A stretch of 64,000 nt of DNA from Acidobacteriota bacterium (GTDB lineage: Bacteria; Acidobacteriota; Terriglobia; UBA7540): positions 1 to 64,000 of the forward strand of contig PLSX01000112.1 in assembly GCA_003165315.1 (NCBI GenBank). Direction: 5' to 3'. The notes under the pieces are model-generated. The model saw nothing but the letters and a program-made list of their open reading frames with translations, did not search any database and had not been told where the DNA came from. Shown here piece after piece: positions 5,701 through 34,563 of the stretch. A program made the position numbers and the translations under genes. Positions within the stretch are counted from its first letter, which is position 1. The number at the start of each line of letters is the position of its first letter.

Positions 5701-8600
5701 GAGCACTCATTCCCCCCCGAAGGAATGTCGAGTGATGCGCCATTGACAATCGAGGTTGGATTTCCAGGATTGAAGTAATTAAGGTTTAGACTTCCAATTG
5801 GCTGCCCGTATCCAGGCTGGCGCGTATCGCTCCCCGAGGTAAAGTTAATACCCTGGGGGCCGACAGGGACGTAATAAGGCGCTGTCCCCGCATATCCGGC
5901 GCGATTGTTCGGATACAGCGAGATTGTGTTCGATGTTGCGCCGTTCACGATGTAATCAAGGTCTTCGATTGTGGGGTTAAGCCCGATAACACCAGTAACA
6001 ACGTTGGTTTTTGCCCCGGCGTTCACGACCACAAAAGCCGAATTGCCGTTTACACCATTTCCCGAATACATCTCCCACGTTACACTTCCATCAGAGGTTT
6101 TTGTACCTTCGGTTGTTGGCCAGCTTGGAACTGTACTCCCCGACGTGGTGGAATAACCGGCTGAATCCGGCGTTACGTCGATTTCACAGTTCGTACCGTC
6201 CCATATTACAGCGCCCCTTCCATAGGCAGTATTAGCCGCCCAGCCTGCACGTCCGTTACAATAAACGTTCTCATCGTCGCCGCTCAGAGTCAACGTGGAC
6301 GCTTGAGACGACGCGAACACTGCCAGGTTGTCGCCTTCATAATCCTGCACGCCGTCGTAGACGTTGTTATAACCACCCGACCCCGAATTCAAATAATCGC
6401 CGGTCCCGTTCCCTCCTCCCCCGTAAACGTTATCGAAGATGTGATTTGAGTTTGCCTGCCCTCCATAGGGGGTATCGTCCAGTACAGTTCCAGCCCAAAA
6501 GTTTGAGTTCGGATTTTCGTTAAAGGTGTTATTCCAAATCCGATTCCAATATCCCGTTGTCAAGATTCCAGTCACGCAATCAAAGGTATTATCATGAATA
6601 TTCGCACTGAGTGATCCCCCCGACGTGTCAAGAAAATCGATGCAGGGGCCGATCCCGGAATTGGAGATTTCGAGGTTTTCAATATCAATTGCACTCGGGG
6701 CGCTTCCTGAATTTACTCCGATAACTGTCGCGGTCGAGTCATTACCGGTGATAATTGTGGAGGCCTTGCCCTGTCCTATGAGCCGACCATTGGTTCCCAC
6801 CTCGATCTGCATGCCACTCGCCCTCGTAAGGGTTAACATGCCAGCGAGCAAAATCGTAATAGGCTGATTTGCAGTGCTGAAAAGCACGTTTTCCCCTAAA
6901 GTCTGCGAGCCACTCAGCCCCCGAGCGTCTATTACGCAGCCATTGGAGGGGCATGCCGCGATGGCGGCGTTGATTTTTGACCCGAAGTCCGCACCCGCTT
7001 GCAGGCTTGCATCGATTACTGTCGTGCCGTTGCCCAAACCCGTGGAAGACCCACCGGTGGCGGCCGCACAAATCGGCGCGCCCGCCGTGGAAATCTGACT
7101 CAGGAACTGGCCGGTCGAGCAAGTTACGGATTTAATTCCTCCCAATGTACTGGCGGCGGGAGTGGGAAGGTCGGCTCCGATCAACGCGCGAAATGTGGGG
7201 ACCGCAGCGCTACCGGATGCAGGCCCCGCCATGAATAGATTGGCACTCTGATTCGCCAAAGATGCCGTTAACGTCCCGGACCCGGTCACTGGCGAACCGG
7301 AAACCGAAAATATGGAGGGCATCGCGAGCCCGACGTTGGTAACTGTTCCGTTCCCTGTACTACAGGAGCCCCAGACCGGATCCGTGCCATTCGAGGTCAG
7401 ACATTGGCCGTTAGCGCCTTTGGCGAGACGGGTATTTGCGGAAGAATGATAGTAAAGAATATCGCCCTCTGTCGTAAGCGGCGAAAGCGCATTGAAAGCG
7501 GATGATGCTGTGGTTTGCCCCGTGCCGCCTTGTGAAATAGCCGCCGTCCCGCTGACGTTGCCAAACGTTGGTTGAATCCATGCGGGCAGCCCGCCGCTGA
7601 TTCCCAGGAATTGATTTGTCCTCCCAATGGGCAGTCGTGACAGGGCAGGCGCCGAGTTCGCAAAAATAAGATCACCCGCCGAAGTGAGGGGTGTTTGCCC
7701 TAGGGTCAAAGAACCCGAAAGGTTTCCGAATCCAGGCTGCTGGCAGTTGGCATTGCCGCTGGTGGAAATCCCTGTGGCCCAGTTGTTGCTGCTGCACTGA
7801 GTGGGAGGGGATGCCAAGGCCGTGGCCGTTGCGGCATTGCCCGTCGTGCTGCTGAATAATGTCGCAGGCAAGTCGCCCGGCGCCAGTGCGCGGAATGTTG
7901 GCGTGGCCGCCTGTCCTGAGCCCGGACCCGCCAAAACCGTGTTGGCCGTCTGGGTGAGCAGTTGCGGTGCCAGCGTTCCGTTCGATGTGATTGGAGATCC
8001 TGAAACGGTTGGGCTGAAGATGATGCCATCGCCTGTCATCCCCACGCTGGTCACGGATCCGGAACCGCCAGCGCCACCCGAAACGAACAGTGTACGGTCG
8101 TCAGTGATGGAGGAAATCGCCGTGCCATTGGTGACGACCGTAGCGATGGGGATGGTTGTTGCACTGAAGCCGGTGGTATTTGATGCCGGCACACAATTGT
8201 TGGAAGTGTTGAGGTACACATAGTTCGTTGCACTGGGTGCAAGAGTCAGCGTGCCGCCGGCATAAGTGATAACGATATTGCTGCAAACCGCCGTTCCCGG
8301 CGCCAAATTCAGGGTCAGGTTTGAGCCGGCGGTCGGCCAGTACCCCGGCCCGAACCCTTGCACATATTTCGCATTGACAGGGAAAAGCTCCTGGACTGCT
8401 TGTGTCTGAGGCTGCTGGGCAAACCCGGCAGGCAGAAGGCAATAAGCGGTCAGCAGCACACACAAGACAATGCTCGTAATAAAGGACTTGTGATTTTGGC
8501 ACTCAGTCCCCACATCACATCCTTCATTTTTACGTCTGGATCCTGACTCCCGACTCCGATAAGCTGACTTTTGAATTCTGATTTCTGTGTTTTTTACCAT
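2760..8600 (-). CDS. Large tail fiber / adhesin-like protein with repeated fiber region and two pectate-lyase-like right-handed beta-helix regions; N-terminal signal-peptide-like segment
   Basis: ORF 2760..8681; GDLIFANSAPALSRLPIG / GQGGTGQTT-type fiber repeats; two beta-helix-like stretches; MVKNTE start at 8600 near the end of the upstream ORF. Confidence 0.75.
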   Translation of the reverse strand: MVKNTEIRIQKSAYRSRESGSRRKNEGCDVGTECQNHKSFITSIVLCVLLTAYCLLPAGFAQQPQTQAVQELFPVNAKYVQGFGPGYWPTAGSNLTLNLAPGTAVCSNIVITYAGGTLTLAPSATNYVYLNTSNNCVPASNTTGFSATTIPIATVVTNGTAISSITDDRTLFVSGGAGGSGSVTSVGMTGDGIIFSPTVSGSPITSNGTLAPQLLTQTANTVLAGPGSGQAATPTFRALAPGDLPATLFSSTTGNAATATALASPPTQCSSNNWATGISTSGNANCQQPGFGNLSGSLTLGQTPLTSAGDLIFANSAPALSRLPIGRTNQFLGISGGLPAWIQPTFGNVSGTAAISQGGTGQTTASSAFNALSPLTTEGDILYYHSSANTRLAKGANGQCLTSNGTDPVWGSCSTGNGTVTNVGLAMPSIFSVSGSPVTGSGTLTASLANQSANLFMAGPASGSAAVPTFRALIGADLPTPAASTLGGIKSVTCSTGQFLSQISTAGAPICAAATGGSSTGLGNGTTVIDASLQAGADFGSKINAAIAACPSNGCVIDARGLSGSQTLGENVLFSTANQPITILLAGMLTLTRASGMQIEVGTNGRLIGQGKASTIITGNDSTATVIGVNSGSAPSAIDIENLEISNSGIGPCIDFLDTSGGSLSANIHDNTFDCVTGILTTGYWNRIWNNTFNENPNSNFWAGTVLDDTPYGGQANSNHIFDNVYGGGGNGTGDYLNSGSGGYNNVYDGVQDYEGDNLAVFASSQASTLTLSGDDENVYCNGRAGWAANTAYGRGAVIWDGTNCEIDVTPDSAGYSTTSGSTVPSWPTTEGTKTSDGSVTWEMYSGNGVNGNSAFVVVNAGAKTNVVTGVIGLNPTIEDLDYIVNGATSNTISLYPNNRAGYAGTAPYYVPVGPQGINFTSGSDTRQPGYGQPIGSLNLNYFNPGNPTSIVNGASLDIPSGGNECSTYGYCGHLNLRLGSLYSMSGITTYGPNAFNQLPTPAAPTLTPMPAGYCTANPSLCSVVPHYLVAHINGGVTLPSAGSFATVITNPNSTNYNLIQVPSAIAGGTDPWSNATWDILKSNTSTSLYTNVRIGPGAAMDTGTSTSAYNAPTRNTTGDLTVAGLPTFFYLASGGPQCAQLSAAGSLSGTGSVCSPSVAIQTNGTNNTSQTTLNFSTSTTNAAGLIVTPVNSSGGVQRFEVTGGSYNGNAATATLATNFSGSLSGDVSGTQGATSVGKVNGASVPAGAPVVTNQSSQVVAIPNVLQPQLLANESGSCNNGYTNTDNTAGIQTAIAGFEGFSSGGSVTLPPCEFNVSTPIVFSNNAQDSAITIQGMATGFPKQPNAQSIGTWGTRIVGNGSNTDLIDVNATSITVRPGGITLKDLYLVGYGEAPTNGACIGSLGPADTTWVEHVRFTDCGYSVYATAGDYIQVRDSYSVNAGYGFYFNGGPFYWGRVEGSIATDSQYNGIYVSDTSGYHFSIIGNDVLRTCEADGCATSAHPANVYDASPDSIIAANRFSDPDANAGGISNVIIDAARIVVVGNEIGSSSINTGACGLVVTANASGSKIGPNTYYNNPTDICVQSGAADVTINEPHAVISDLGTRTVINGKSTNAGDPDASGVWQGVSKWGGLQIFDSASGLTYVYSDATHRTILPAFAISGSPSGTTSTVTYSQTFNAGNQSPLAGNWSIAAGGLALQLYSSAVTPTGINNAGTNNYLEYWNANAFPSNQTSTVTISAFADNQSKVGAAVRVAQGGLNGLNYYFGYCVGPAGTSTCTIAKFVNNTYSSLGTTSVTIALSDTIGLGVSGTTLTLYHNGTSVLSETDSSLTTGAPGIWVANNTLYHAGVSAWSGTFRATTIGAAAANNVATTTNTDNRGVITLSSGSGGYTFSQGPGASGAWTTAPVCVFFDVTNSTHQITPTVSVSGISLSGTAADVINYLCMPGN

Positions 8601-9250
8601 ACTTGCACCTTTGCGGTTACCCCAGCGTCGGAGGCAACAAGATAGAGGTTTACGTCGTCCACGTCCGTGGGCGATTGCCACCAGATGGCGCCCGGACTGG
8701 TCATTCGGATTTGCGCCCCAATGGGAACACGTCCCAGCAAATGCGGCACGGTAAAGTTGCCAGGACCCAAGGGCGTCACCGGAAGCTGGCCGAAGAGGTT
8801 CGTCGCTTGAGTCACGTTGGTGACTTGCGCCGCATTCGTCACAATGATGCCAATGAAGGCATCCCCCGGTGTCAGTGCGGCAAGAACAGGCCGGTAGTAG
8901 TAACTGCTGGGCCAGTTCTCCTGTTGATAAAACAGGTAGGAGGTTGAATTCGTGGGTGCCGCATCGAGGGTGAGGTCGGTGGGTGCGTACCGCGTGCCGT
9001 TAGCGTAGAGAATTCCATTCGTTACGCCGGGATAAAGTGAATTTGAGGTTGCGAGCTGAAAGCCGCTCACCACCCCGTTTAATCCCAGGTCTCCCACCAG
9101 CGTGTCCGCAACCGACGCCAGGTCGCTCAAGAACGCAACATTGGCGTCGAGTAGTGCCATGTTGCCGTCCATGTCCGATTCGTATTGAGTTATTCCATGC
9201 TGCGGCTGGACAAAACCCTTTCGCGGTAGGATCGTTCTTACGATAGCCAT
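8594..9250 (-). CDS. Phage structural protein, hypothetical (tail/fiber associated)
   Basis: 218 aa, co-directional within phage block. Confidence 0.6.
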   Translation of the reverse strand: MAIVRTILPRKGFVQPQHGITQYESDMDGNMALLDANVAFLSDLASVADTLVGDLGLNGVVSGFQLATSNSLYPGVTNGILYANGTRYAPTDLTLDAAPTNSTSYLFYQQENWPSSYYYRPVLAALTPGDAFIGIIVTNAAQVTNVTQATNLFGQLPVTPLGPGNFTVPHLLGRVPIGAQIRMTSPGAIWWQSPTDVDDVNLYLVASDAGVTAKVQVW

Positions 9251-9265
9251 TCGAGCACCTCTTTA

Positions 9266-9351
9266 ATTGCCGATTGCGGATTGACGATGGCGCAAGATCG
9301 ATTGGCGAACTGCCTTTTAATCGGCAACCGAATATCGAAAATCGTCAATTT
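9266..9351. repeat. Heptamer palindrome, flavour ATTGCCG
   Basis: Left ATTGCCG ATTGCGG ATTGACG ATGG; right CGGCAAC CGAATAT CGAAAAT CGTCAAT. Confidence 0.75.
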
Positions 9352-9352
9352 T

Positions 9353-9862
9353 TCAGTCTCCACTTACCCCGGCAGGCAGGTTGACACTGAGCCGTTGGCA
9401 AATTGCCATGACCTTTGCCGTACCTTGATTCTCGGCTCCGCTGGTCGACCAATAGGTTTGAATCACGACCCTGCCACTTGAATCATTGACGTCGAGTTGA
9501 TATGGGCAGACAACCAGGCTGCCTTGGCCAGGGTCGCTATTGGCAAGGGCAGGCGGGGTGGCTTGCCCTGGAACATAACCCGCCGCTGGCGAACGGGAAG
9601 AATACAGAATGGGGATAAACAGACACTCCGCGTAGCTGTAGGCGTAGCCATCCACGGGTGAGACCGGCGGGGAAACGGTGTCGCCCGGACCGTAAAATCC
9701 TATATATATGACCTCGCACCTGACTGCCCCGAACTTGGCATTGTGTGAAATCTTCGCCAGGGCGTAATCCGTAAGCGGTTGGCCGCCGGCAATCGTCGAG
9801 TCGGCTAAATCAAAGAACCCCGGAATCGAACTCATCAGCATTTGGGACATGAGAACCTCCAA
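9353..9862 (-). CDS. Hypothetical phage protein
   Basis: 169 aa; C-terminal end abuts the palindrome at 9266-9351. Confidence 0.6.
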   Translation of the reverse strand: MEVLMSQMLMSSIPGFFDLADSTIAGGQPLTDYALAKISHNAKFGAVRCEVIYIGFYGPGDTVSPPVSPVDGYAYSYAECLFIPILYSSRSPAAGYVPGQATPPALANSDPGQGSLVVCPYQLDVNDSSGRVVIQTYWSTSGAENQGTAKVMAICQRLSVNLPAGVSGD

Positions 9863-14493: not shown

Positions 14494-14560
14494 TTGGGTA
14501 GGCAGTAGGCAGCAAACGTGCCCTGCTGCCCACTGCCTACTGCCTTCTGCCTACTCTGCT
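14494..14560. repeat. Heptamer palindrome, flavour GTAGGCA
   Basis: GTAGGCA GTAGGCA GCA / TGC CTGCCCA CTGCCTA CTGCCTT CTGCCTA. Confidence 0.8.
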
Positions 14561-15238: not shown

Positions 15239-15248
15239 ATTAATCCTT

Positions 15249-15331
15249 AGGTCTCAGGTGTCGGGTGCCAGGTGTCAGGCAAGCGCAAAAGCCTTGGACC
15301 TGACACCTGATACCTGGTACCCGACACTTCC
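15249..15331. repeat. Heptamer palindrome, flavour AGGTGTC
   Basis: aggtgtcgggtgccaggtgtcagg / cctgacacctgatacctggtacccgacact. Confidence 0.85.
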
Positions 15332-16277: not shown

Positions 16278-16571
16278 TCACCACTCGAGTACATTCTCTT
16301 CCTTGTCAAACTCGCCATGCTCTCGCGCGGCAAGGGTCTCAGCCGCGGTGCAGTCCACCAGATAAGCCGGCATGCCCGTGAGTTCCAGAAGCTCGCTCGG
16401 CCGGCAAAAGCTCCGTTTTGCCACTTCCGCCAGGTACAGAACCCGCTCCTTGTCCCCCAGGAAATCGCCCGAGGTCTTCAGTCGAGGTGACAGGTGACAG
16501 GTTACAGGTTGCAGGGATCTCATCCCTGTTCCCTGTAACCTGTGACCTGTTCCCTGAACTGAACACCTCAC
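16278..16571 (-). CDS. C-terminal part of tail assembly chaperone-like gene (frame-shifted relative to upstream ORF)
   Basis: TSGDFLGDKERVLYLAEVAKRSFCRPSELLEL is in a different frame from the 16339..16923 ORF; annotated start is GTG inside a palindrome. Confidence 0.45.
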   Translation of the reverse strand: MRCSVQGTGHRLQGTGMRSLQPVTCHLSPRLKTSGDFLGDKERVLYLAEVAKRSFCRPSELLELTGMPAYLVDCTAAETLAAREHGEFDKEENVLEW

Positions 16572-16923
16572 CTCGCAGCCAGAGGAATACGAACTTCAGA
16601 TCATCGATCAGAATATCGGCCAGGCCGATCTCATCTGCTGTGGGAGTCGCCGCGAAGCGGGGTTGCACAAACAAGCGCGTGAGTGTCGCAGACAGCCACT
16701 GGGTAAACGCCTCAACGTCTTCCACCTTAACTTCCTCGGGCTTGGCGTCGGTAACCCGGGCTTGCAGCAATGTACCCGTTCGCCCCATTTCGAGCGCGGC
16801 AAACACGGGAGGCCGGCAGAGCAAGACGGTTAAGCCGCTCGCGGGAAGTGCTACCCTTTCGACATTCGAGTGCTCTATAGCTCGCTTGAAATCTTCCGAC
16901 TTGGCAATACAGTCATCAGGCAT
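16339..16923 (-). CDS. Tail assembly chaperone-like protein, N-terminal part
   Basis: ORF 16339..17019, ATG at 16923 (MPDDCIAKSEDFKRAIEHS); reading frame after LWLRGEV runs through a palindrome. Confidence 0.5.
   Translation of the reverse strand: MPDDCIAKSEDFKRAIEHSNVERVALPASGLTVLLCRPPVFAALEMGRTGTLLQARVTDAKPEEVKVEDVEAFTQWLSATLTRLFVQPRFAATPTADEIGLADILIDDLKFVFLWLRGEVFSSGNRSQVTGNRDEIPATCNLSPVTSTEDLGRFPGGQGAGSVPGGSGKTELLPAERASGTHGHAGLSGGLHRG
16486..16566. repeat. Heptamer palindrome, flavour AGGTTAC
   Basis: aggtgacaggtgacaggttacaggttgcaggg / ccctgttccctgtaacctgtgacctgttccct. Confidence 0.85.
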
Positions 16924-16937
16924 TACAACCTCGTCAC

Positions 16938-17030
16938 TATTGCCCTTTGCGCTTTGATTTTTGCCTTTTGACTTCTGGCATTTAGAAATGCAAGTCAAAA
17001 GGCAAAGCGCCGAGGCCAAGAGGTAAAACC
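16938..17030. repeat. Heptamer palindrome, flavour TTTTGCC
   Basis: TTGCCCT TTGCGCT TTGATTT TTGCCTT TTGACTT / aagtcaaaaggcaaagc. Confidence 0.8.
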
Positions 17031-17831: not shown

Positions 17832-17930
17832 CCTTCACTTTTGCCTTTTGCGTTTTGACTTTTGATTTGCTCCGGCCCCAGGGAAGAACAAGGCAAAAGG
17901 CAAAACGCAAAAGTCAAATGGCAAAAGTTA
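17832..17930. repeat. Heptamer palindrome, flavour TTTTGCC
   Basis: cttttgccttttgcgttttgacttttg / caaggcaaaaggcaaaacgcaaaagtcaaatggcaaaag. Confidence 0.88.
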
Positions 17931-19129: not shown

Positions 19130-19206
19130 CCAGCCTGTCAGCTATCAGCTCCCAGCAATCAGCCAGACCTTTAAGCTGACCGCTGAGTGCTGATTGCTGA
19201 ACGCTA
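19130..19206. repeat. Heptamer palindrome, flavour CAGCTAT
   Basis: gtcagctatcagctcccagcaatcagc / gctgaccgctgagtgctgattgctgaacgct. Confidence 0.82.
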
Positions 19207-19925: not shown

Positions 19926-20024
19926 CTGGCAAAAGATGCTTTCAGCCATCAGCTATCAGCCAGTACGGTCGCCAGGCGCAGGGCCAGGGCTGACCGCTGA
20001 AAGCTGATAGCTGACAGCTTCCGG
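19926..20024. repeat. Heptamer palindrome, flavour CAGCTAT
   Basis: tcagccatcagctatcagcc / ggctgaccgctgaaagctgatagctgacagctt. Confidence 0.82.
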
Positions 20025-20029: not shown

Positions 20030-20971
20030 TTACGCCACCGCGTTCTTGAACACATACATCGCGCCGGGCACGACGATCTTTACGCAGTAGTAGGTTTGGA
20101 ATTCGATCATGTCGCCGCTACGTTCTTCCACCCGGTAGCGTTTGACAATCATTCCGCCGTTGTTGGGCACGCCATACGTCCAGCGGAAGGTGGTGCCGGG
20201 AGTGATCATCAACTGCCCTTGCCCCGGCGGCACATACGCGAGAACGGCATTCTTGCCCCAAATGTAGTTGAGATTGTGCGAGATGCCCTGTTGCGAAGTG
20301 TCATACAGTGATTTGGCAACAATAAGGTTGTCAACGTTGAACAGGCCGGCCAGCTGCTGGTCGGTGGGATACCCGAGCGGCAGCGCGTGGTTCTTGAACC
20401 GGTCGAGGATGATGGGGTGCTGGATCAGTTGCAGCCACACCGGATAGCCGATCAGCAGCGTATTGGGCTCCTTGGTGCAGCTCAGCAGAATCGTCGACCG
20501 CTGCGCGGTAATTGCCGCAACCGGGTCGGAATTCTGAAAGTCGCTCCATTGGCCCGTGCCCGCCAGCGTGGTATTGGGCACTGAGGTGGAGTTCATGACG
20601 AGGTTGTAGATTTGGATTTCCCGCTGCTTGTCGATGATGTCGGCCAGCGTTTCCGTGGTAAAAATCTCGGGGCCAGTGGAGAAATCCCATTTGGCCCGCA
20701 GTTCGTCCGGGATCAGCTGCTTCTGCGCTTTGCCGTCGCAGTAGTACTCATCGTTCGACATGCGCCAGCCGGGCATTTCATTGGCTTCCGTCCCCGGAGC
20801 GCGTTCCGTGTTGTAAGACTTGAAACGCTCGAAACCGAAAATCGGGTAGCGATCGTTCTGCTTTGAAACCGGGAAATCGGGGAACAGCCGTCCCCCCACG
20901 AAATCCTGGTTGCGGTAGAGGACAGAATAGTTGGTCAAAAACTGGTCAAGATGGGCTAAAGAGACTTCCAT
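20030..20971 (-). CDS. Phage major capsid protein
   Basis: ATG at 20971 (MEVSLAHLDQFLTNYSVLYRNQDFVGGRLFPDFPV); length, position and capsid-like N-terminus. Confidence 0.8.
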   Translation of the reverse strand: MEVSLAHLDQFLTNYSVLYRNQDFVGGRLFPDFPVSKQNDRYPIFGFERFKSYNTERAPGTEANEMPGWRMSNDEYYCDGKAQKQLIPDELRAKWDFSTGPEIFTTETLADIIDKQREIQIYNLVMNSTSVPNTTLAGTGQWSDFQNSDPVAAITAQRSTILLSCTKEPNTLLIGYPVWLQLIQHPIILDRFKNHALPLGYPTDQQLAGLFNVDNLIVAKSLYDTSQQGISHNLNYIWGKNAVLAYVPPGQGQLMITPGTTFRWTYGVPNNGGMIVKRYRVEERSGDMIEFQTYYCVKIVVPGAMYVFKNAVA

Positions 20972-20989: not shown

Positions 20990-21156
20990 AGAGTCCGAAG
21001 TCCGGCGGCCGGAGTCCGAAGCCAAAACCCACGCGCGCACCGCAGTTGTTTGTCAAACGACAAATTCTGCGGCGGGCGCTGATCCGCGATCCAGAATCCG
21101 AGTTCCCGGAGCCCCGCGACTCCGGACTTCGGACCTTGGACTTCGGACTAAAGCTT
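20990..21156. repeat. Heptamer palindrome, flavour GAGTCCG
   Basis: GAGTCCG AAGTCCG GCGGCCG GAGTCCG AAGCC / CGACTC CGGACTT CGGACCT TGGACTT CGGACT. Confidence 0.85.
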
Positions 21157-21666: not shown

Positions 21667-21748
21667 GATCAGGTTATAGGTTACAGGTAACAGGTTACAG
21701 AAGAGGTGTTACTGTCACCTGTAACCTGTGCCCCGTAATCTGTTCTTA
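21667..21748. repeat. Heptamer palindrome, flavour AGGTTAC
   Basis: aggttataggttacaggtaacaggttacag / ctgtcacctgtaacctgtgccccgtaatctgt. Confidence 0.85.
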
Positions 21749-23164
21749 TGCGCTCTTCGCATCCGACCGGTAGGTCTTCAGCAAATCGGGATTTTCCTTC
21801 GCCACCAGGGCCCCGGCCCGGCGATACGCTTCCAGTTCACCCAGGCGGACGTCTGCCTGCATGAGTTCCTTTTTTTGCGCTTCCACCATCTTGGAAAAGA
21901 GCTGGCGGGGCGACTCCACTTCCGACCCCGATCCGCCAATGCCCACCACCGTGTTGGCTTTAATCAGGGGCGAGCGGTCTTCAATCAGCGATTTGAAAGC
22001 CGCGCCGTCCGCTAGCGCCAGGCGCAGGGGCGCGCCCGTGGCCATCATGGCGGGAGTGATCAGCCCGCGGTTCAAGGCGTTCTGCACGCGCTGTTCGGCG
22101 TCTTTGGCGCGGCGCCAGCCGGAGCGGCTGATCTTGCCGGAATCGTCAAGCGCATCCAGCTTGCTATTATCCAGTTTGCCGTTTGAGCCGATGGATTCGG
22201 AGAGCAGCGTGACCTCGGCCTTCAGCGGGTGGAGCGCCAGGGTCACCAGACCGCGGATCTCCTCTCTGCTCCGTCCTTCCGCGCCAACCTCGCTCGCGAA
22301 TGTGGAATAGGCGTCGTTCAACGCCTGGACGCCCATGCCCCGCGCGCTCAGCTTGCCCTCCACAGAAGGCCCGTCCTTTCCTGCGTGCCTGCTTGCATAG
22401 TCGTAGAGATGGTCGTTTGCGATCTCGCCGACTTTACGATCTCCGTCGTAGGCTTCGTGCGTGCCTTCGGCGGAGCACTTGATGTTCAACGTTGGCATTT
22501 TTCCTCCTTGTTCCGCCGAGAGGCGGGTTAAAAACGGTCCGCTGTCCGGTGTCCGGTGTCCGGGGTCAGAAGGCCCCGACTCCGGACTCCGGACTCCGGA
22601 CCTCGGACTCTCGACGCTCAGCCACACTTCCGGTAATTCGTCGAGAAACGGTTGATTGGTCAGCGCCACGCTGGTGAGCGTCAAGCCTTGCGACTCTCCC
22701 GTCTTGCGGTCGGGATAGTCCTTGGCAAAGGCCGCCGAAACGTAGCGGTATTCGCGGTTCTTGATCAGTTGCCGCGCCCGGGCCGTGGGTTCGTACCGGC
22801 CATACAGAATGAAGCGGGGCTGGGGGCTGGGTGCTGGAGGCTGGGATTTTCCCGAGCCCCGAGTCCCGAGTCCCGACTCCCGAAACTCTTCCGGCCGATC
22901 CAGCTTCAGGATTCTTCCCGCGCTGGGTGTGGGCTCGCCCGCGGCGCGTTCCAGTTCCTCGCAGGCGTGGTCGTAGTCCACATTCAGGTCGTGGTTGGCA
23001 AGTTTTTGAAAGTTGTCCACGGCCTGGTCAAGGTCCTCGCGGGTGAAGGAAACGTCGCGTCCCCCTTTCACCCAACTGCCGGTAACGAGAATCGGTATGC
23101 GCGCAAGCCCGTCGGCAGGGACGGCACTGAGTTGCGAGATGAAGTGGAACTGTGCGTGACTCAT
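21746..23164 (-). CDS. Phage head maturation protease / scaffold (Mu I-like) with two in-frame repeat-derived inserts
   Basis: VTGSWVKGGRDVSFTREDLDQAVDNF and LDVNYDHA-type N-terminus; inserts FRESGLGTRGSGKSQPPAPSPQP and SPRSGVRSPESGPSDPGHRTPDSG. Confidence 0.7.
   Translation of the reverse strand: MSHAQFHFISQLSAVPADGLARIPILVTGSWVKGGRDVSFTREDLDQAVDNFQKLANHDLNVDYDHACEELERAAGEPTPSAGRILKLDRPEEFRESGLGTRGSGKSQPPAPSPQPRFILYGRYEPTARARQLIKNREYRYVSAAFAKDYPDRKTGESQGLTLTSVALTNQPFLDELPEVWLSVESPRSGVRSPESGPSDPGHRTPDSGPFLTRLSAEQGGKMPTLNIKCSAEGTHEAYDGDRKVGEIANDHLYDYASRHAGKDGPSVEGKLSARGMGVQALNDAYSTFASEVGAEGRSREEIRGLVTLALHPLKAEVTLLSESIGSNGKLDNSKLDALDDSGKISRSGWRRAKDAEQRVQNALNRGLITPAMMATGAPLRLALADGAAFKSLIEDRSPLIKANTVVGIGGSGSEVESPRQLFSKMVEAQKKELMQADVRLGELEAYRRAGALVAKENPDLLKTYRSDAKSA
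22530..22612. repeat. Heptamer palindrome inside protease CDS, flavour GTGTCCG
   Basis: ctgtccggtgtccggtgtccggggtc / gactccggactccggactccggacctcggact. Confidence 0.85.
22816..22890. repeat. Heptamer palindrome inside protease CDS, flavour GGGTGCT/CGGGACT
   Basis: gctgggggctgggtgctggaggctggg / cccgagccccgagtcccgagtcccgactcccg. Confidence 0.8.
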
Positions 23165-23171: not shown

Positions 23172-23284
23172 CTTAGCTTTCAGCGTTCAGCAATCAGCGT
23201 TCAGCGTTCAGCCTTCAACGTTTAGCGTTCAGCTTTTAGCGACCAGCCAGGGCCGTGGCTGACAGCTGATCGCTGAGGGCTTCC
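23172..23284. repeat. Heptamer palindrome, flavour CAGCGTT
   Basis: tttcagcgttcagcaatcagcgttcagcgttcagcc... / gctgacagctgatcgctgagggctt. Confidence 0.8.
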
Positions 23285-23989: not shown

Positions 23990-25807
23990 TCAGTTGTTGG
24001 CTGCCGGCTCGCCCACAACCTCATCATCCACATACTCGCCAAACCCCAATTCATGCCTTGCCTGGTTCACGCTTGCGCGGTCGTTCACCCACGCTCCCGC
24101 CCCGGCAAGTTGGGCGATGATGGCGGCCATGGAATCGATCGACCGCGCCTGCACGTTGGCCGCAACCAGATGGGGAATGGGCGCGTCGGGCCCAAAGTTC
24201 CATTCCACCAGCCGCCGGATGGTTGAATTGCGGATCTGGTGCGCGATATAGTCCGCGGTGTTCTGCGTGGCCAGCATAAAGAAGTCGGTTTGCGAATCGC
24301 CCAGCGCGCGCGAGCCGGTTGCCGTCTGCCCCAGCTCCATAAACATGGCCAGGCACGACGTGGCGATCTGCTGTTTGTGGTACTGGATGGAGGGCAGAAT
24401 CTCGCGAATGCGTCCTTCGATGCCTACCAGTTTGAACTCCGCGCCGTTGGGCAGGGAGAGCCCGGTCTTCTCATGCGCGGCCAACTGCGTCACCCAATTC
24501 TGCGCCGTCTGCACGTCCTGCCTTGAGGGATTGGGCGGCAGCATGATCATGGGCACGCCCAGGGAGTTGCGTTCGCAGGCGATGGCGTCAATCCGTTCCA
24601 AATGCTTCTTCACAAACCAGTGCGGATACATGGCGCGGGTCAGCGGGATACCCCAGAAGTTTGCGCCCTCCTGCTCGTGGGTAAAGACGCACGCCTTGTC
24701 CGTGGGCAGCAGCACGTTTTCAAACCGGTTGCCGCGGTAGCCCCATTGTTCCAGGGCGTAGAGCGTTTCGCCGTCGTCATAAACAAACGGCGGCAGGCTG
24801 GGATCAAGAACCTGCGGATCGGTGTGCCAGCGGTAGAACGTCAGCGCCTGGCGGTCGCACATGCGGCGCAGGCGGATGCGGTCGCCATCCACGGTCACCA
24901 CTTCCTCGTAGCACGCCGCGCCAAAATCCTGCATGCGCAGCGCGTAGCGCACCACCTCTTTCCAATTCTGCGTGTGCCATGAGCCGCGATGGTCCTGCCA
25001 CTCCAGCTTGCCAAACAGGTTGGCGCGTACGAATTCCGCCACCTCCTTGGCCTTCTCCGCCGTCTGCACGCCCACCCCGGTGTTGGAAACGGCGTGGGAG
25101 TTGGGAGTAGGGAGTAGGGAATCGCCCGGCTGATCTTGCTCGTCCCGAGTCCCGAGTCCCGAAACATCCCCCGGCACGACCTCCCACTTCGCGGAAAGAA
25201 TGGGCATCTTGCAGGCGCGCAGCGTGCCCGCCACCTGGCCATCGCCGCGCCGCATTTCCTGATAAGTCCAGATGCCGTTCACGCCTTCCAGCTTGGGGTT
25301 GTACTCGCCCAGGTCGCGCACAAAGCCGGAGGTGATAGGCGTTCCCGGCAGTCCCATCACCGGAGTCCAACCGGCGCGGATGCGTTCCGTATACTCCGTC
25401 ATCGAAATCGGCTCCGGCGCAGGCGTGGCAGGAACGGAATGTGTTGGCGCTACGGGAAGGCCGCTGGACAGCGCGGGACTCGGGACGGAAAAGCCGGAGC
25501 TCGTGACTCGTGACTCGGGACTCGGGGCAAGGGACAAGGGAGTAGGGACACGGGAAAACGAGTCCGAGGTCCGAGGTCCGATGTCCGAAGAAGAAAGTCC
25601 GGCGTCAGAAGTCCGATGTCCGAGGTCCGAAGTCCGCGGCCCGATGCTTGATGCCGGATGTCCGGAATTCGGAATGCTGAATTCGGAATGCTGCAGTCCG
25701 ACTTCACGATCAGCCAATTTCACGGCCGCATCGATCTGCGCTTGCAGCGTCGAGCGCCGTTCGCGATTGAGTTTCCGACTTTGATTGCCGTTACCAGAAC
25801 TTTTCAT
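23990..25807 (-). CDS. Phage portal protein, DUF935 (Mu gp29-like), with in-frame repeat-derived inserts
   Basis: 605 aa; EYTERIRAGWTPVMG..., WTYQEMRRGDGQVAGTLRACKMPILSAKWEV; position after terminase. Confidence 0.85.
   Translation of the reverse strand: MKSSGNGNQSRKLNRERRSTLQAQIDAAVKLADREVGLQHSEFSIPNSGHPASSIGPRTSDLGHRTSDAGLSSSDIGPRTSDSFSRVPTPLSLAPSPESRVTSSGFSVPSPALSSGLPVAPTHSVPATPAPEPISMTEYTERIRAGWTPVMGLPGTPITSGFVRDLGEYNPKLEGVNGIWTYQEMRRGDGQVAGTLRACKMPILSAKWEVVPGDVSGLGTRDEQDQPGDSLLPTPNSHAVSNTGVGVQTAEKAKEVAEFVRANLFGKLEWQDHRGSWHTQNWKEVVRYALRMQDFGAACYEEVVTVDGDRIRLRRMCDRQALTFYRWHTDPQVLDPSLPPFVYDDGETLYALEQWGYRGNRFENVLLPTDKACVFTHEQEGANFWGIPLTRAMYPHWFVKKHLERIDAIACERNSLGVPMIMLPPNPSRQDVQTAQNWVTQLAAHEKTGLSLPNGAEFKLVGIEGRIREILPSIQYHKQQIATSCLAMFMELGQTATGSRALGDSQTDFFMLATQNTADYIAHQIRNSTIRRLVEWNFGPDAPIPHLVAANVQARSIDSMAAIIAQLAGAGAWVNDRASVNQARHELGFGEYVDDEVVGEPAANN
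25089..25166. repeat. Heptamer palindrome inside portal CDS
   Basis: gggagttgggagtagggagtaggga / tcccgagtcccgagtcccga. Confidence 0.8.
25470..25700. repeat. Long compound heptamer array inside portal CDS
   Basis: GAGTCCG AGGTCCG AGGTCCG ATGTCCG ... AAGTCCG ATGTCCG AGGTCCG AAGTCCG ... GGAATTC GGAATGC TGAATTC GGAATGC. Confidence 0.85.
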
Positions 25808-25919: not shown

Positions 25920-27665
<1,746 letters not shown>

Positions 27666-27689
27666 GGATACGTTGTCTCTCATTAATCG

Positions 27690-27756
27690 ATTCGTAGGGG
27701 CTGGCCTTGTGCCTGCCCGGTTCCGGGCCCCCACAAGGGGTGCCCCTACATGTTCA
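27690..27756. repeat. REP-like hairpin (GTAGGGGC...GCCCCTAC)
   Basis: gtaggggctggccttgtgcctgcccggttccgggcccccacaaggggtgcccctac. Confidence 0.75.
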
Positions 27757-27814
27757 ACGCGGTCCTTATCCCGCACCGCTCTTGTTCAACACTGCTCTTT
27801 TTCAGCACCACCCC

Positions 27815-30164: not shown

Positions 30165-30191
30165 TTCCTCGATTCGGAATTTGCTGATTGA

Positions 30192-30472
30192 TCTCAGGTG
30201 CTAGGTGCTAGGTTCCAGGTGCTAGGTGCTAGGTTCCAGGTGCTAGGTGCCAGGTGTCAGAGAGCGGAAAGGTGTTAGGCGTCAGGTGTCAGAGGGCAGA
30301 AAGGTATCAGGTGCCGGGTGTCAGGTGTCAGGAAGAACCGCACGCCTTGCATCCTGTCTCTAACTTCCGCCTTTTCGCACCCGATACTAAACAATCCGCA
30401 CCTCGCAATTAGACCTGACACCTTCTTTTCCACCTAACCCCTAACCCCTAACACCTAGCACCTAACACCTCT
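30192..30472. repeat. Longest intergenic heptamer palindrome, flavour CAGGTGC
   Basis: CAGGTGC TAGGTGC TAGGTTC CAGGTGC TAGGTGC TAGGTTC CAGGTGC TAGGTGC CAGGTGT ... cacctaacccctaacccctaacacctagcacctaacacct. Confidence 0.88.
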
Positions 30473-30474
30473 CC

Positions 30475-30870: not shown

Positions 30871-30992
30871 GGTTATCGGCTCTCAGAGAATCGGGAGATC
30901 CGGAGATTGGTTGACCGGTCGAACAAGTTGATCGGGGGGTACGGTCCTTCGTTGTTCACCCGATCACCCGATCTTCTGATCTCCCGACGCTG
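30868..30992. repeat. Octamer-period palindrome, flavour GATCGGGA
   Basis: AATCGGGA GATCCGGA GATTGGTT GACCGGTC / TCACCCGA TCACCCGA TCTTCTGA TCTCCCGA. Confidence 0.75.
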
Positions 30993-31336
30993 ACCCTAAC
31001 CTGACTGCTCGGTGACGCGACAATGTGCCTCCACAGCCCTTCGTACAACGCATGCTGCGCGGCGAATTGGAATACGGCGGAAATCACGAACGTGGCGAAT
31101 CCGCGCAAAAGCGTTGCGCCATCGGGCCAGCTCACCGTAAGGCTGTGCGGCGCACGCGCAAACTCAATCCCCATGGAAGTCAGCAGCGCCATAACCCCGC
31201 TGGTCAGTACGCAGACCTTCGGCTTGTTCTGGTCGATCCACGAAAAGGCCGCACTCCGGCTGCGCTTGGCCAACTGAATCAAAAGGGGCATCACGAAAGT
31301 TATGAGGGCTTGCATTTGTATCGATTGAATATCCAT
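30956..31336 (-). CDS. Holin-like small membrane protein
   Basis: ATG at 31336 (MDIQSIQMQALITFVMPLLIQLAKRS); two to three hydrophobic segments; near lysis-type genes; C-terminal SSQVRVSVGRSEDRVIG is repeat-derived. Confidence 0.5.
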   Translation of the reverse strand: MDIQSIQMQALITFVMPLLIQLAKRSRSAAFSWIDQNKPKVCVLTSGVMALLTSMGIEFARAPHSLTVSWPDGATLLRGFATFVISAVFQFAAQHALYEGLWRHIVASPSSQVRVSVGRSEDRVIG

Positions 31337-31351
31337 TTGCTTAACTCCCTT

Positions 31352-31484
31352 CTTAGGTGTCGGGTGCCAGGTGTTAGGAACCAGTAAAAGCTCACCCTTC
31401 ACTCACACTCCACTGATGTCATGCCATCTCCCAATTTGTCCCTATCACCCTGTTTTCACTCCTGACACCTGACCCCTGACACCT
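31352..31484. repeat. Heptamer palindrome, flavour AGGTGTC
   Basis: aggtgtcgggtgccaggtgttagg / cctgacacctgacccctgacacct. Confidence 0.82.
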
Positions 31485-32526
31485 CTTCCAAATCGCTCTC
31501 CAGCGTCGCCAGATCAAACCCGCTCGGCGCCACTCCGCTCAACTTCAACCAGTCTTTTGAAACCAGCGCGTAGGCTTCACTGCAATACTTCTCAAACCAG
31601 GCAAAAGTCATCTTCTTAGGCTTGCCCCAGGTGATGCAGGTCAGAGTTGGGGGCTGGGCGCTGGGTGCTGGGGACTGGGGAGAAGCAACTCGGGACTCGG
31701 AGCCGGCGATTCGTGACTCGATCTTAGAGGTTTGAGTTTCGGAATCCGAAACACTGGCTCCAGAATCCGGAATGCGGAATCCGGAAACTGAAACGCTCGA
31801 TCCAGAATCCGCCGTTTGAGTTCCGGAATTCGGAATGCGGGATGCGGAATCTGAGCTTCCTAATCCCGAGTCCCGAGTCCCGGGTCCCGAGTCCCGCATG
31901 TCATACCCCACCAGATAAATCGCATGTCCGCCCCAAGAACCCGGTTCATCATCGGGCCCGAGATTGGCTGGCACATCCCAAACATCCTGTGTCTGCGCCC
32001 TGATGGGCAACTCCACGCCAATGTAAGCCCCGCCAAAAACCCAGATGGCTTGCGTGACTTCGGACATCGGACTTCGGACCCCGGACAGTCCTATCTCTGC
32101 ATACGCATCCAGCGAAACTCCGCCAAATCCCTGCTGCCGCCAATCGTTCAAGACATCGAGTTCCACTCCGCCCTGGTCGGTCGAGGGGTTCGCGGGGTTA
32201 TAGCCATCCCACTTCTCGTAGTATTCAAGGATGGTGGAATCGGGCACGGTCAGTTCCTGGCTGGCATTGGCAGTCCAGGTCTGAACAGCGTGCCCGACGG
32301 CCGCAATCGTGCAGCAGCCCAACTGGTCATTCAGCATCATTCCCCAATCCCTGATGCCGCACGTGTAGTCAACGCTGGCAGGCGGCTGAATTGGCTGGGC
32401 TTGTCCGGGCAACGCCTGTCCTGCCTGAGCTTGTCCCGCCGCCGTCAAATAACGAGCCAATTGCAACGTGCGTGGGTCATGCCGCCGGGCACGCTTGCCG
32501 AGTTTTAAGTGCGAGTGGTCAGTCAT
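31456..32526 (-). CDS. Papain-like (C1-type) cysteine peptidase with long in-frame repeat-derived insert
   Basis: VDYTCGIRDWGMMLNDQLGCCTIAAVGHAVQTW and WGGHAIYLVGYD; insert of ~80 aa RDSGPGTRDSGLGSSDS...SPAPSAQPP. Confidence 0.65.
   Translation of the reverse strand: MTDHSHLKLGKRARRHDPRTLQLARYLTAAGQAQAGQALPGQAQPIQPPASVDYTCGIRDWGMMLNDQLGCCTIAAVGHAVQTWTANASQELTVPDSTILEYYEKWDGYNPANPSTDQGGVELDVLNDWRQQGFGGVSLDAYAEIGLSGVRSPMSEVTQAIWVFGGAYIGVELPIRAQTQDVWDVPANLGPDDEPGSWGGHAIYLVGYDMRDSGPGTRDSGLGSSDSASRIPNSGTQTADSGSSVSVSGFRIPDSGASVSDSETQTSKIESRIAGSESRVASPQSPAPSAQPPTLTCITWGKPKKMTFAWFEKYCSEAYALVSKDWLKLSGVAPSGFDLATLESDLEEVSGVRCQE
31650..31900. repeat. Long compound heptamer array inside C1 peptidase CDS
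   Basis: gctgggcgctgggtgctgggga ... ccgaaacactggctccagaatccggaatgcggaatccggaa ... cccgagtcccgagtcccgggtcccgagtcccg. Confidence 0.85.
32048..32085. repeat. Short heptamer array inside C1 peptidase CDS
   Basis: gacttcggacatcggacttcggaccccggac. Confidence 0.75.
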
Positions 32527-32534
32527 CGTGAACT

Positions 32535-32655
32535 CCAAGTAATAGGTGATAGGGAACAGTTGACAGGTAGCAGGTCACAATTAAGAGGTGACGTTGAAAA
32601 GCGAACAGGTGACAGGTCTTCCTGTAACCTGTGCCCTGTAACCTGGAACCCCTAT
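32535..32655. repeat. Heptamer palindrome, flavour CAGGTNA
   Basis: gttgacaggtagcaggtcac ... aggtgacaggtcttcctgtaacctgtgccctgtaacctgg. Confidence 0.75.
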
Positions 32656-33197
32656 TTCAGCGGCTTGAATCTCGAGTCGCCAGCAACGATCTTGTTGAAC
32701 TGCTGCTTAAAGTCCTTCGCCTTCCAGCCCTTCGCCTGAAGGGGCGCAGCAGCGGTTTTGCCGAGCCCCGTGTCCCGAGTCCCGAGTCCCGTGTTTGCCG
32801 GCACCAAGGCCGCGATCTCCGCCACCGCCTGCGAAAGCAATTGCACAACTTCCGTCACGGTTGTTTTGGTTGCGGCATTTTTGATTTGCGCGGCGCTTTC
32901 CAGTTGCGCAACATTTGTATTCACCGCGGCAAACGCCGCCTGCACCGTCTGAAGATTGGTGGCCGTGGGCGAGGCCTTGAAGGCGTCAAGCGTCTTCGCC
33001 AGCGCCGCAAAGCCGTTCTCAATCAGGCCCACCAGGGGCGCAAGCGCAGGGTCAATGACGTCAATCAAGCTGCCGGCAATCGGCGCCGCAACCTCGGCAT
33101 CAGCCTCCACCGTGTTCACCCAAGCCGGAACCGAGCAGGCCAGGAACCCCAGCGTGCACCCGAGTATTACTGCAAAGAAAACGTTTTGAAGTTTCAT
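32652..33197 (-). CDS. Putative lipoprotein in lysis-like module
   Basis: ATG at 33197; MKLQNVFFAVILGCTLGFLACS lipobox-like. Confidence 0.55.
   Translation of the reverse strand: MKLQNVFFAVILGCTLGFLACSVPAWVNTVEADAEVAAPIAGSLIDVIDPALAPLVGLIENGFAALAKTLDAFKASPTATNLQTVQAAFAAVNTNVAQLESAAQIKNAATKTTVTEVVQLLSQAVAEIAALVPANTGLGTRDTGLGKTAAAPLQAKGWKAKDFKQQFNKIVAGDSRFKPLK
32762..32794. repeat. Heptamer array inside lipoprotein CDS
   Basis: cgagccccgtgtcccgagtcccgagtcccgtg. Confidence 0.78.
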
Positions 33198-33351
33198 GTT
33201 TCTCTCCTTAGAATCTTTCAAATTCACAGCTAAAGGCTGTCAGCGCGGACTTATGCTTTCATTCGTCAGTTCCCGGTTATCAGTCATTGCCTCGGCCCGG
33301 GCCCCGGGACTCGCAAAAGCGGCAGTCAATTCAACTCATCCGCTGTTTAGG

Positions 33352-34563
33352 TCACGGCGAACTGTGGACTGCCGGCTGTGAGCTGTCAGCCACTCTTCCC
33401 GGGTCGACTCCAGTGGCAAACCACTCGACCGCGCGTGAATCATTCAAGCGGTACAACTCGATCAATTTGATAAGCTCCGCGGAGTAGCTGGGATTTGTGG
33501 AATATCCACAATGCTCCGAATCAAGCGGGGAGGATTTGGGCCCCAGCCGCTCCGCAAACTGTTTCCAATCGTGACGCACCGCAAAAGCCGGCCGGTAACG
33601 TGGCGAACAGAGCAATTGCGCATGCGCCTTAAAGGCTTCGGTTAAATTGGGAAAACGCTGGAACTGGGCGATTATCACCTTCTTCTGCCCGTTCACGATT
33701 TCCCAGGTCTGAGCATCAAAAGCACCGTAAGGGTCGGGAATGGAGTGGTCGTCCGACCCGATGATCGGGGGACTCGGTGACCCGGTGTTCGATTGGCTGG
33801 TCGAACCGGTGATCGAGTGATCGTCTGAAGGGACGCGGGCTTGCCCTATTCTTTCCGGTCCGCCTGCCTGTGCCGGCCGCTGGGCACCGAGCTCAGGGTG
33901 CAGGGAATTGGGGGTCAGCGATCTTGAATCTTGAATTGTGAATGTTGAATCGCCGCTGCGTGGCTCCGCTTCGGAATCTGGAATCCGCGATCCGGAATTG
34001 TGAGCCGGTCCGTCAGTCGATGGCCTTTCTTGGTCGTCAATGGCTCGACGATCCGCTGGCTCAATGGCCCGATTGCCTGCCCCATAATGTTCATACTTGA
34101 TGCCAAACGGATTGTTGGCGATCCGGAACAGCGAACTGCTGCCCCAGCCGGCGGACGTGGCGCTTTCTAAAATCGCCTGCGCCAATGTGACGCAAGCAGG
34201 AATCTGATATATGCGTTCGCTCTCTAGCGCCCCAGGCGCGACCCGCAAAAGGAATTGCAGTTCCTGCGAGGAAAGATGCGGAATCTCTAATTGGACGTTT
34301 GGTATCGGGGGTCTTGAACCTTGAATCTTGAATTTTAGATCGGAAGTCTGCGTCAGAGGTTCCGCAGTCGGGTACCTGGGATTTTGAGTCTTGAATTGTG
34401 AATTGGATTGCGGGACTCTTAAATCGGGCCTTTGGGTTCTTGAATCTTGAATCTTGGTTTTTGAATCCGGAATTCGGAACCCGGAATCCGGATTCGCATG
34501 ATCCGCGGAAATTCCACTTTGGGGGGCAGCTTCGAGTTGTGTGTTCTGAATATTTTCGGTCAC
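33352..34563 (-). CDS. Glucosaminidase/muramidase-like endolysin with repeat-derived low-complexity regions
   Basis: IPACVTLAQAILESATSAGWGSSSLFRIANNPFGIK typical of glucosaminidase domain; HCGYSTNPSYSAELIKLIELYRL. Confidence 0.75.
   Translation of the reverse strand: MTENIQNTQLEAAPQSGISADHANPDSGFRIPDSKTKIQDSRTQRPDLRVPQSNSQFKTQNPRYPTAEPLTQTSDLKFKIQGSRPPIPNVQLEIPHLSSQELQFLLRVAPGALESERIYQIPACVTLAQAILESATSAGWGSSSLFRIANNPFGIKYEHYGAGNRAIEPADRRAIDDQERPSTDGPAHNSGSRIPDSEAEPRSGDSTFTIQDSRSLTPNSLHPELGAQRPAQAGGPERIGQARVPSDDHSITGSTSQSNTGSPSPPIIGSDDHSIPDPYGAFDAQTWEIVNGQKKVIIAQFQRFPNLTEAFKAHAQLLCSPRYRPAFAVRHDWKQFAERLGPKSSPLDSEHCGYSTNPSYSAELIKLIELYRLNDSRAVEWFATGVDPGRVADSSQPAVHSSP
33755..33830. repeat. Octamer-period array inside muramidase CDS
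   Basis: GATCGGGG GACTCGGT GACCCGGT GTTCGATT GGCTGGTC GAACCGGT GATCGAGT GATCG. Confidence 0.72.
33912..34000. repeat. Heptamer array inside muramidase CDS, flavour TTGAATC
   Basis: atcttgaatcttgaattgtgaatgttgaatc ... ggaatctggaatccgcgatccggaatt. Confidence 0.78.
34315..34505. repeat. Compound heptamer array inside muramidase CDS
   Basis: TTGAATC TTGAATC TTGGTTT TTGAATC CGGAATT CGGAACC CGGAATC CGGATTC. Confidence 0.82.

What the first reader, a model, noticed from the sequence alone, without database searches (positions are those of the whole stretch)
8400..34505. Dispersed palindromes built from degenerate tandem heptamers permeate the phage block
About 30 loci within ~26 kb (plus several outside) share one architecture: a left arm of 2-10 degenerate 7-mers, a short centre, and a right arm of reverse-complement 7-mers. 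The 7-mer differs from locus to locus (AGGTGTC, AGGTTAC, CAGCTAT, GAGTCCG, TTTTGCC, GTAGGCA, GAATTCG, ATTGCCG) while the period and symmetry persist. They occupy many gene-gene junctions of the phage block. Precedents for parts of this exist (heptanucleotide STRRs in cyanobacteria, Rickettsia palindromic elements), but I know of no named family that combines palindromic arms, heptad period and locus-specific flavour.
Basis: partly seen in the sequence, partly recalled or inferred. Interest (0 to 1): 0.92.

Follow-up and report, generated by a model that had tools for sequence, protein, structure and literature searches.

The report
Heptamer palindromes filling phage gene junctions
A conserved phage-type gene cluster in soil Acidobacteriota is filled, between and even inside its genes, with small palindromes built from 7-letter tandem repeats; similar repeats are known in cyanobacteria and Xanthomonas, but here the sequence is swapped at the same place between relatives while the shape and a fixed strand direction are kept.

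Summary
The repeats are real. The 26-kb block has 58 period-7 arrays (0.5 expected in shuffles; 5 in the other 38 kb), and 30 have an inverted partner within 260 nt. Rfam has no match. The kind is known: degenerate heptanucleotide (STRR-type) repeats, paired as hairpins and replaced at one locus, are published for the Nostoc trnL intron, and convergent pairs for Xanthomonas. New here: (1) In related capsid clusters the same junction holds a palindrome of another flavour; other lineages have none, so it is not needed. (2) Density is 5 to 60+ times that of the host genome in several genera. (3) The arms share a 5-nt core with two adjacent free positions, but unit order is not mirrored, so arms are not inverted copies. 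(4) Polarity is fixed: 103 of 106 palindromes agree within a flavour, and no genome of 396 has both polarities of the TCAGC palindrome. (5) Arms sit around older sequence (a covarying RNA hairpin before the capsid gene) and in frame in terminase loops, where a relative carries REP-like elements. Best reading: mostly selfish palindromic elements, spreading from founder copies, growing in 7-nt steps, tolerated in unconstrained gaps. How the 7-nt unit arises is not shown.

The parts
14498..14555 (.). Palindrome, flavour AGGCAGT, at a junction between the long tail gene and g14481
   Evidence: arms 14498-14512 / 14526-14555, gap 13
15246..15327 (.). Palindrome, flavour AGGTGTC, between g14855 and g15335
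   Evidence: fold
16485..16556 (.). Palindrome, flavour AGGTGAC/AGGTTAC, inside the 3' part of ORF 16339-17019
17838..17927 (.). Palindrome, flavour TTTTGCC, between the Ig-domain gene and g17928
   Evidence: fold
19138..19200 (.). Palindrome, flavour TCAGC, between g18589 and g19204; the same flavour is at this junction in L044
19504..19577 (.). Palindrome, flavour AGGTTAC, between g19204 and g19575
19938..20019 (.). Palindrome, flavour TCAGC, between g19575 and MCP; other flavours or non-heptamer hairpins at this junction in L041, L044, L046-L049
20992..21149 (.). Two AGTCCGA arms enclosing the conserved MCP leader RNA hairpin
21031..21080 (-). Conserved RNA hairpin upstream of the MCP gene: 12 of 18 pairs have compensatory changes in 8 sequences; present without arms in the repeat-free sister clusters
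21670..21729 (.). Palindrome, flavour AGGTTAC, between g21148 and the protease gene; same flavour in L044, others in L041, L045 and L048
22537..22610 (.). Palindrome, flavour GTCCGGT/GACTCCG, inside the protease ORF 21746-23164
22816..22883 (.). Two arrays, GGGGCTG then TCCCGAG, inside the protease ORF
23175..23277 (.). TCAGC array of about 10 units with a short right arm, at a junction
25096..25162 (.). Arrays GGGAGTA and GTCCCGA, in frame inside the portal ORF; absent at this place in L044
25500..25693 (.). Long composite of CTCGTGA, AGTCCGA and GAATTCG arrays near the portal N-terminus, in frame; L044 has different arrays (CAATCGG, CAATCAC) there
26315..26346 (.). CGGGACT array in terminase loop 3, in frame; L044 has a REP-like palindrome here
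26555..26587 (.). Inverted CGGGACT array in terminase loop 2, 208 nt of conserved coding sequence away from the one above
26831..26967 (.). AGTCCGA palindrome in terminase loop 1, in frame, with a 61-nt centre
30195..30470 (.). Long AGGTGCT/AGGTGTC arms with an inverted arm at 30433-30470, between g29853 and g30475
31648..31896 (.). Composite of several flavours inside ORF 31456-32538
20030..20971 (-). Major capsid protein gene, the anchor of the comparison (phrog_1005)
25920..27776 (-). Terminase large subunit with three repeat-bearing loops

Best explanation
The palindromes are STRR-type heptanucleotide palindromic elements: short, non-coding, probably selfish. Shown: they are insertions at places that tolerate extra DNA (stop-to-Shine-Dalgarno gaps, the outside or tip of structured RNA, in-frame protein loops); relatives lacking them keep the genes; within a genome a flavour recurs with fixed polarity; the arms share only a 5-nt core plus two adjacent free positions. 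Inferred: each flavour in a genome descends from a founder palindrome or half-palindrome that is copied or gene-converted to other tolerant sites; arms then grow and shrink independently in 7-nt steps and drift at the free positions; elements replace one another, so the same junction holds different flavours in different lineages. The phage-type operon is densest because it offers many short unconstrained junctions and exchanges DNA. The enzyme and the origin of the 7-nt step are not shown.
For: Chance excluded. The same junctions carry different flavours in 7 related clusters, while the sister cluster with MCP 76-78% identical, partly in the same MAGs, has none. Arrays are in-frame insertions in three terminase loops hit independently in several genera. 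In G003 two of those loops hold a GTRGCACAG..CTGTG REP-like palindrome with about 35 copies in that genome, so they are landing sites. Flavour sharing within genomes is 8.5% against 3.5% between genomes (the own-genome figure is partly inflated by contig choice), and 100% against 1.3% in the G049 cluster. Polarity: 103/106 within flavour; TCAG family 72:4; in 396 genomes 15 have only one polarity, 3 only the other, none both. Unit order is not mirrored. Junctions in repeat-free lineages mostly lack hairpins.
Against: No insertion boundaries, target-site duplications or transposase were identified. Loops are clearly alike only in one phage contig. REP tags are not enriched at palindrome feet, and Y1 transposase counts do not separate rich from poor genomes. 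Arms around an older centre (MCP leader) are not a simple palindrome insertion. Why the capsid cluster is so much denser than the host genome is only guessed.
Confidence: 0.5

Rival explanations
1. Functional RNA stems: selection keeps a long hairpin at operon junctions (mRNA protection, translational insulation, closing off the leader RNA), whatever its sequence.
For: In the genus, nearly every structural junction longer than about 40 nt has a strong hairpin running from just after the stop codon to just before the Shine-Dalgarno, with unrelated sequences. Arms of five different flavours enclose the covarying MCP leader hairpin. Stop-to-start arms also occur in the dcw operon. Host arrays avoid divergent junctions: 0.32/kb against 1.08 and 1.42.
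Against: Repeat-free lineages keep the same genes in the same order, mostly without junction hairpins. Arrays inside terminase, portal and protease ORFs have no junction role. REPs show the same junction bias (PMC3733652). A need for a hairpin would not fix polarity.
Confidence: 0.2
2. Directional heptamer writing: an activity adds 7-nt units to free DNA 3' ends at paired nicks or breaks. The two ends get the same core in opposite orientation, which gives fixed polarity, arms that are not mirror copies, and old sequence in the middle.
For: Polarity 103/106, unmirrored unit order, arms flanking conserved sequence, period 7 far above 6, 8 and 9, five constant plus two adjacent variable positions.
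Against: No enzyme found: reverse transcriptase (RVT_1) is absent from the 98%-complete, repeat-rich G054. At least 166 different 5-mer cores would need many templates. Inherited founder copies explain polarity as well.
Confidence: 0.12
3. Local slippage only: each locus starts from a chance small hairpin and each arm expands by 7-nt polymerase slippage (proposed by Mrazek and co-workers for heptanucleotides, cited in PMC4679880).
For: Independent arms, 7-nt indels reported between close Cyanothece strains, locus-specific flavours.
Against: Chance seeds would give both polarities of a core and no genome-specific flavours; observed are 103/106, mutually exclusive genomes, and a single flavour through the whole G049 cluster.
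Confidence: 0.1
4. They are ordinary REP/MITE elements moved by RAYT/Y1 transposases.
For: Palindromic, intergenic, polar, sharing landing sites with a REP-like family in the same genus. Y1_Tnp is present in most rich genomes and absent from three repeat-free ones.
Against: No GTAG or CGTC tag at the feet (38 and 14 of 444, against 41 and 20 in shuffles). No conserved element sequence. Y1 is plentiful in poor genomes G050 and G051 and absent in G019, which has arrays.
Confidence: 0.08

Closest known systems
Heptanucleotide repeats in the P6b stem of the Nostoc trnL group I intron (Class I TDNGATT, Class II NNTGAGT; PMC4476775, PMC3488679)
   Same: Degenerate 7-nt units with two adjacent free positions in Class II, paired as a hairpin, one flavour replacing another at the same locus while the structure is kept; located at the outside of a structured RNA
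   Different: One locus and two flavours in cyanobacteria; here tens of loci per cluster, many flavours, Acidobacteriota and phage-type genes, also inside proteins
GGGAATC heptamer repeats of Xanthomonas (PMC4692102)
   Same: Intergenic degenerate heptamers; 70-75 cases in convergent inverted pairs; fixed polarity; not at the same genes in related species
   Different: One dominant flavour per genome; host-wide rather than concentrated in a capsid cluster
Cyanobacterial STRRs and TAACTGA repeats of Beggiatoaceae, Cyanobacteria and Bacteroidetes (PMC4679880)
   Same: Patchy distribution over phyla, intergenic, 7-nt indels between close strains, mixtures of heptamers in Microcystis
   Different: Mostly described as direct repeats without paired arms
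REP/BIME elements (PMC3733652)
   Same: Polar palindromes between co-directional and convergent genes, sometimes intragenic; they share landing sites with the heptamers here
   Different: REPs have a conserved sequence and a GTAG/CGTC tag; these do not
Rickettsia palindromic elements (from general knowledge)
   Same: Palindromic insertions tolerated in frame inside protein genes
   Different: RPEs are sequence-conserved families without a 7-nt period; not compared by sequence here

Membership tests
Heptanucleotide STRR (cyanobacteria/Xanthomonas type) | Tandem degenerate 7-nt units far above chance | tested here: met
Heptanucleotide STRR (cyanobacteria/Xanthomonas type) | Mainly intergenic, many dispersed copies | tested here: met
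   80 of 100 arrays intergenic in own host contigs with about 14% non-coding
Heptanucleotide STRR (cyanobacteria/Xanthomonas type) | Sequence identity with the published STRR consensus units | not tested
   Single units resemble published ones (e.g. consensus CCCCAGT at 26598-26634) but no systematic comparison was made
Nostoc P6b-type heptamer hairpin | Heptamer arms pair; flavour replaced at the same locus | tested here: met
Nostoc P6b-type heptamer hairpin | Part of a group I intron | tested here: not met
   No Rfam match in the window
REP (GTAG/CGTC-tagged) | Unpaired GTAG or CGTC tag at one foot | tested here: not met
   No enrichment at 444 feet
REP (GTAG/CGTC-tagged) | Associated RAYT/Y1 transposase | tested here: inconclusive
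   Present in 22 of 26 genomes but does not track repeat density
MITE | Defined ends with target-site duplication and conserved internal sequence | tested here: not met
   Loops and outer flanks are not conserved in G000 families and arm lengths vary; target duplications could not be scored
CRISPR array | Direct repeats of 21-47 nt with unique spacers | tested here: not met
   Basic period is 7 with inverted arms
Gene transfer agent (for the cluster) | Single, mostly vertically inherited capsid cluster without replication or integration genes | tested here: inconclusive
   One MCP per genome in most of 39 genomes, synteny kept, partial agreement with the FtsW tree (rho 0.36-0.42); packaging of host DNA not testable

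The most novel reading that the evidence does not exclude
A strand-specific activity writes 7-nt units onto 3' ends at nicks or breaks in bacterial and phage DNA, making polar, unmirrored palindromes around older sequence. That would be a telomere-like end-addition process outside telomeres, and would explain the 7-nt period shared by cyanobacterial, Xanthomonas and acidobacterial STRRs.
Probability: 0.1. Interest if true: 0.92.

Novelty: new variant of a known kind. Interest (0 to 1): 0.62.

Why it matters
Heptanucleotide repeats have been noticed in scattered bacteria for decades without a mechanism. The capsid cluster gives a natural experiment: homologous junctions with different flavours, lineages without them, and fixed internal controls (protein reading frames, a covarying RNA). 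The polarity rule and the unmirrored arms constrain any mechanism, and they can be tested by sequence comparison alone. The findings also warn that short junction hairpins in phage operons can be parasitic rather than regulatory, and they expose a widespread, mostly vertically inherited capsid cluster in this Acidobacteriota family.

Tried and rejected
Inverted copying of one arm from the other: rejected, because permuting unit order leaves complementarity unchanged (190 pairs). REP membership: no tag. Reverse transcriptase as a necessary agent: absent from a 98%-complete repeat-rich genome. Y1 transposase: no clean correlation. Known RNA family: no Rfam match. Essential junction function: repeat-free lineages. 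Simple rule 'G-rich strand first': holds for 84 of 107 flavours but not for the commonest TCAGC family, so polarity belongs to the flavour and lineage rather than to base composition. Host contamination or a single bad assembly: excluded by independent MAGs and IMG/VR contigs. A wrong flavour pattern was searched in G049 and carries no information. Not tested: G-quadruplex potential, terminator activity, target-site duplications.
Full report
WHAT IS THERE. The block 8400-34505 of this Acidobacteriota (Terriglobia) MAG holds 58 period-7 arrays. Shuffles give 0.5 on average, and the other 38 kb hold 5. At the strictest threshold only period 7 and its multiples stand out. Thirty arrays form 17 inverted pairs within 260 nt, against 0 in shuffles; eight more have weaker partners and about 20 have none. 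One palindrome is octameric (30891-30987). The host genome has the repeats too, but at 0.87 arrays per 10 kb in unselected contigs against 18.8 in the block; 80 of 100 host arrays are intergenic. Junction classes differ: co-directional 1.08, convergent 1.42, divergent 0.32 arrays per kb. The essential dcw operon also carries arms around stop-to-start junctions (murF/mraY, murD/ftsW).

THE BLOCK. It encodes terminase, portal, protease, major capsid protein (MCP), tail proteins and endolysin. A homologue of the MCP is in 32 of 39 genomes of the family (16 of 18 genera), usually a single copy, 42-48% identical between genera. The gene order terL-portal-protease-MCP-...-tail is kept. The MCP tree agrees partly with the FtsW tree (Mantel rho 0.36-0.42, at most 1 of 2000 permutations). 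The cluster is therefore old and mostly vertically inherited, perhaps a gene transfer agent; this was not proved. Unrelated phages can carry the repeats as well: an IMG/VR contig with terminase, portal, tape measure and a replication-initiation protein has 22 palindromes, all of the TCAGC flavour and all of one polarity.

COMPARISON WITH RELATIVES. In seven clusters with MCP 83-91% identical, nearly every junction longer than about 40 nt holds a strong hairpin running from just after the stop codon to just before the Shine-Dalgarno, often with a different flavour at the same junction. Two junctions keep their flavour between the window and its nearest relative L044; others do not. The sister cluster (MCP 76-78%, found in some of the same MAGs) has none. 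Across genera the cluster is repeat-rich in some (5 to 12 arrays per 10 kb in G017, G049, G054 and G042) while random pieces of the same genomes have 0 to 1.0. In G013, G022, G050, G051 and G021 both are near zero. Junctions in repeat-free lineages are mostly 30-90 nt without marked hairpins. A junction hairpin is therefore not required.

WHERE THEY INSERT. In the terminase, arrays are in-frame insertions in three loops between conserved blocks, and the same loops are used in several genera with different flavours. In L044 (genome G003) two of these loops instead hold a REP-like palindrome, GTRGCACAGGCACTCCTGCCTGTG, of which that genome has about 35 copies. Before the MCP gene lies a 50-nt RNA hairpin with compensatory changes in 12 of 18 pairs among 8 sequences. 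A covariance model finds it in the repeat-free sister clusters directly before the start codon (sequences), whereas in the window's clade the palindromic arms lie on both sides of it. In genera such as G054, G017, G053 and G019 palindromes sit between CTCCGCG and CGCGGAG of a conserved leader (the pairing was read by eye, not modelled). The arms can thus surround older sequence.

ANATOMY. In arrays with exactly two variable columns these are adjacent in 55 of 83 (21 at distance 2, 7 at distance 3; a third each expected), i.e. five constant and two free positions. Array pairs share an inverted core in about 41% of cases below 200 nt against 6% far apart in the block and its relatives. Inverted exceeds direct clearly only below about 150 nt, so the 208-nt terminase pair could be chance. 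Unit order is not mirrored: permuting the units of one arm does not lower complementarity (190 pairs, median share of permutations at least as good 0.76; power is limited because units are alike). Polarity is fixed within a flavour in 103 of 106 palindromes and 72:4 in the TCAG family. In 396 genomes of the phylum the palindrome TCAGC..GCTGA occurs in 15, the opposite order in 3, both in none. In viral contigs CAGGT..ACCTG is found in 11 stretches and the reverse in 2. These counts are not fully independent, since related contigs occur. Flavour sharing is 8.5% within and 3.5% between genomes, though the own-genome figure is inflated because contigs L001-L020 were chosen by one flavour; in the G049 cluster it is 100% against 1.3%. 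Loops are alike in the IMG/VR phage, hardly at all in the own genome.

HOW IT MOST LIKELY WORKS. Shown: insertion at tolerant sites, lineage-dependent presence, replacement of flavours, fixed polarity, independent arms. Inferred: founder palindromes spread within a genome and their arms change by 7-nt steps. Not known: the agent, the reason for seven, and why capsid clusters are so rich. Functional stems (0.2), directional end-addition (0.12), pure slippage (0.1) and REP/MITE transposition (0.08) remain as rivals. Reverse transcriptase is not needed and Y1 transposase does not track density.

RELATION TO KNOWN REPEATS. Degenerate heptamers paired in a hairpin, with replacement of one class by another at the same locus, are described for the Nostoc trnL intron (PMC4476775, PMC3488679). 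Convergent inverted heptamer pairs are described for Xanthomonas (PMC4692102), direct heptamers for Beggiatoaceae, Cyanobacteria and Bacteroidetes (PMC4679880), and a slippage idea for seven nucleotides is credited there to Mrazek and co-workers. REPs share the junction preference but have tags, which are absent here (PMC3733652). This is a new, multi-flavour and phage-borne variant of a known kind rather than a new category.

LIMITS. Most data are draft MAGs; presence and absence near contig ends is uncertain. IMG/VR loci L056-L257 were chosen by two flavours. Arrays below threshold are missed. No expression data exist.

Noticed in passing
window 2760-34563; L288-L304: The phage block is a conserved capsid cluster found, usually once per genome, in 32 of 39 genomes of the family with kept gene order and partial agreement with a host tree: a candidate gene transfer agent or long-domesticated prophage.
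   Followed up: partly
window 21031-21080 (minus strand): A covarying RNA hairpin just upstream of the major capsid gene, found also in the sister clusters, with no Rfam match; possible autoregulatory leader.
   Followed up: partly
L288, L289, L298, L302, L296 upstream of MCP: Other genera have a different conserved MCP leader (..GTCAGC.GCCGGGG..CTGCTGACGGGTCTCCGCG..CGCGCGGAGCGC..); palindromes lie between its apparent pairing halves.
   Followed up: no
G000 (31 places, e.g. window 57350-57373) and G003 (35 places): A REP-like family GTRGCACAGGCACTCCTGCCTGTG, often in inverted pairs, two of them inside the G003 terminase gene.
   Followed up: partly
window 30891-30987; L044, L045, L046 junctions: Palindromes of octamers (GATCGGGT) occupy the same kind of junctions, so the unit is not always seven.
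   Followed up: no
L046, L047 junctions: Non-heptamer palindromes beginning GGTAGCCACGGCAC replace heptamer palindromes at homologous junctions.
   Followed up: no
L010 5117-16991: dcw operon with arrays in gene ends; MurD carries a C-terminal extension of several hundred residues that contains an array.
   Followed up: partly
L091, L136, L140 (IMGVR_UViG_3300045936_000120): A tailed-phage contig with 22 TCAGC palindromes, all of one polarity, mostly at gene junctions, loops often TAAACCGC-like.
   Followed up: partly
L050-L054, L305, L306: A second, repeat-free cluster type with MCP 76-78% identical, in the same MAGs as repeat-rich clusters.
   Followed up: partly
window 39190-49708: Genes for several multihaem cytochromes (CXXCH) and an NHL-repeat protein next to the phage block.
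   Followed up: no
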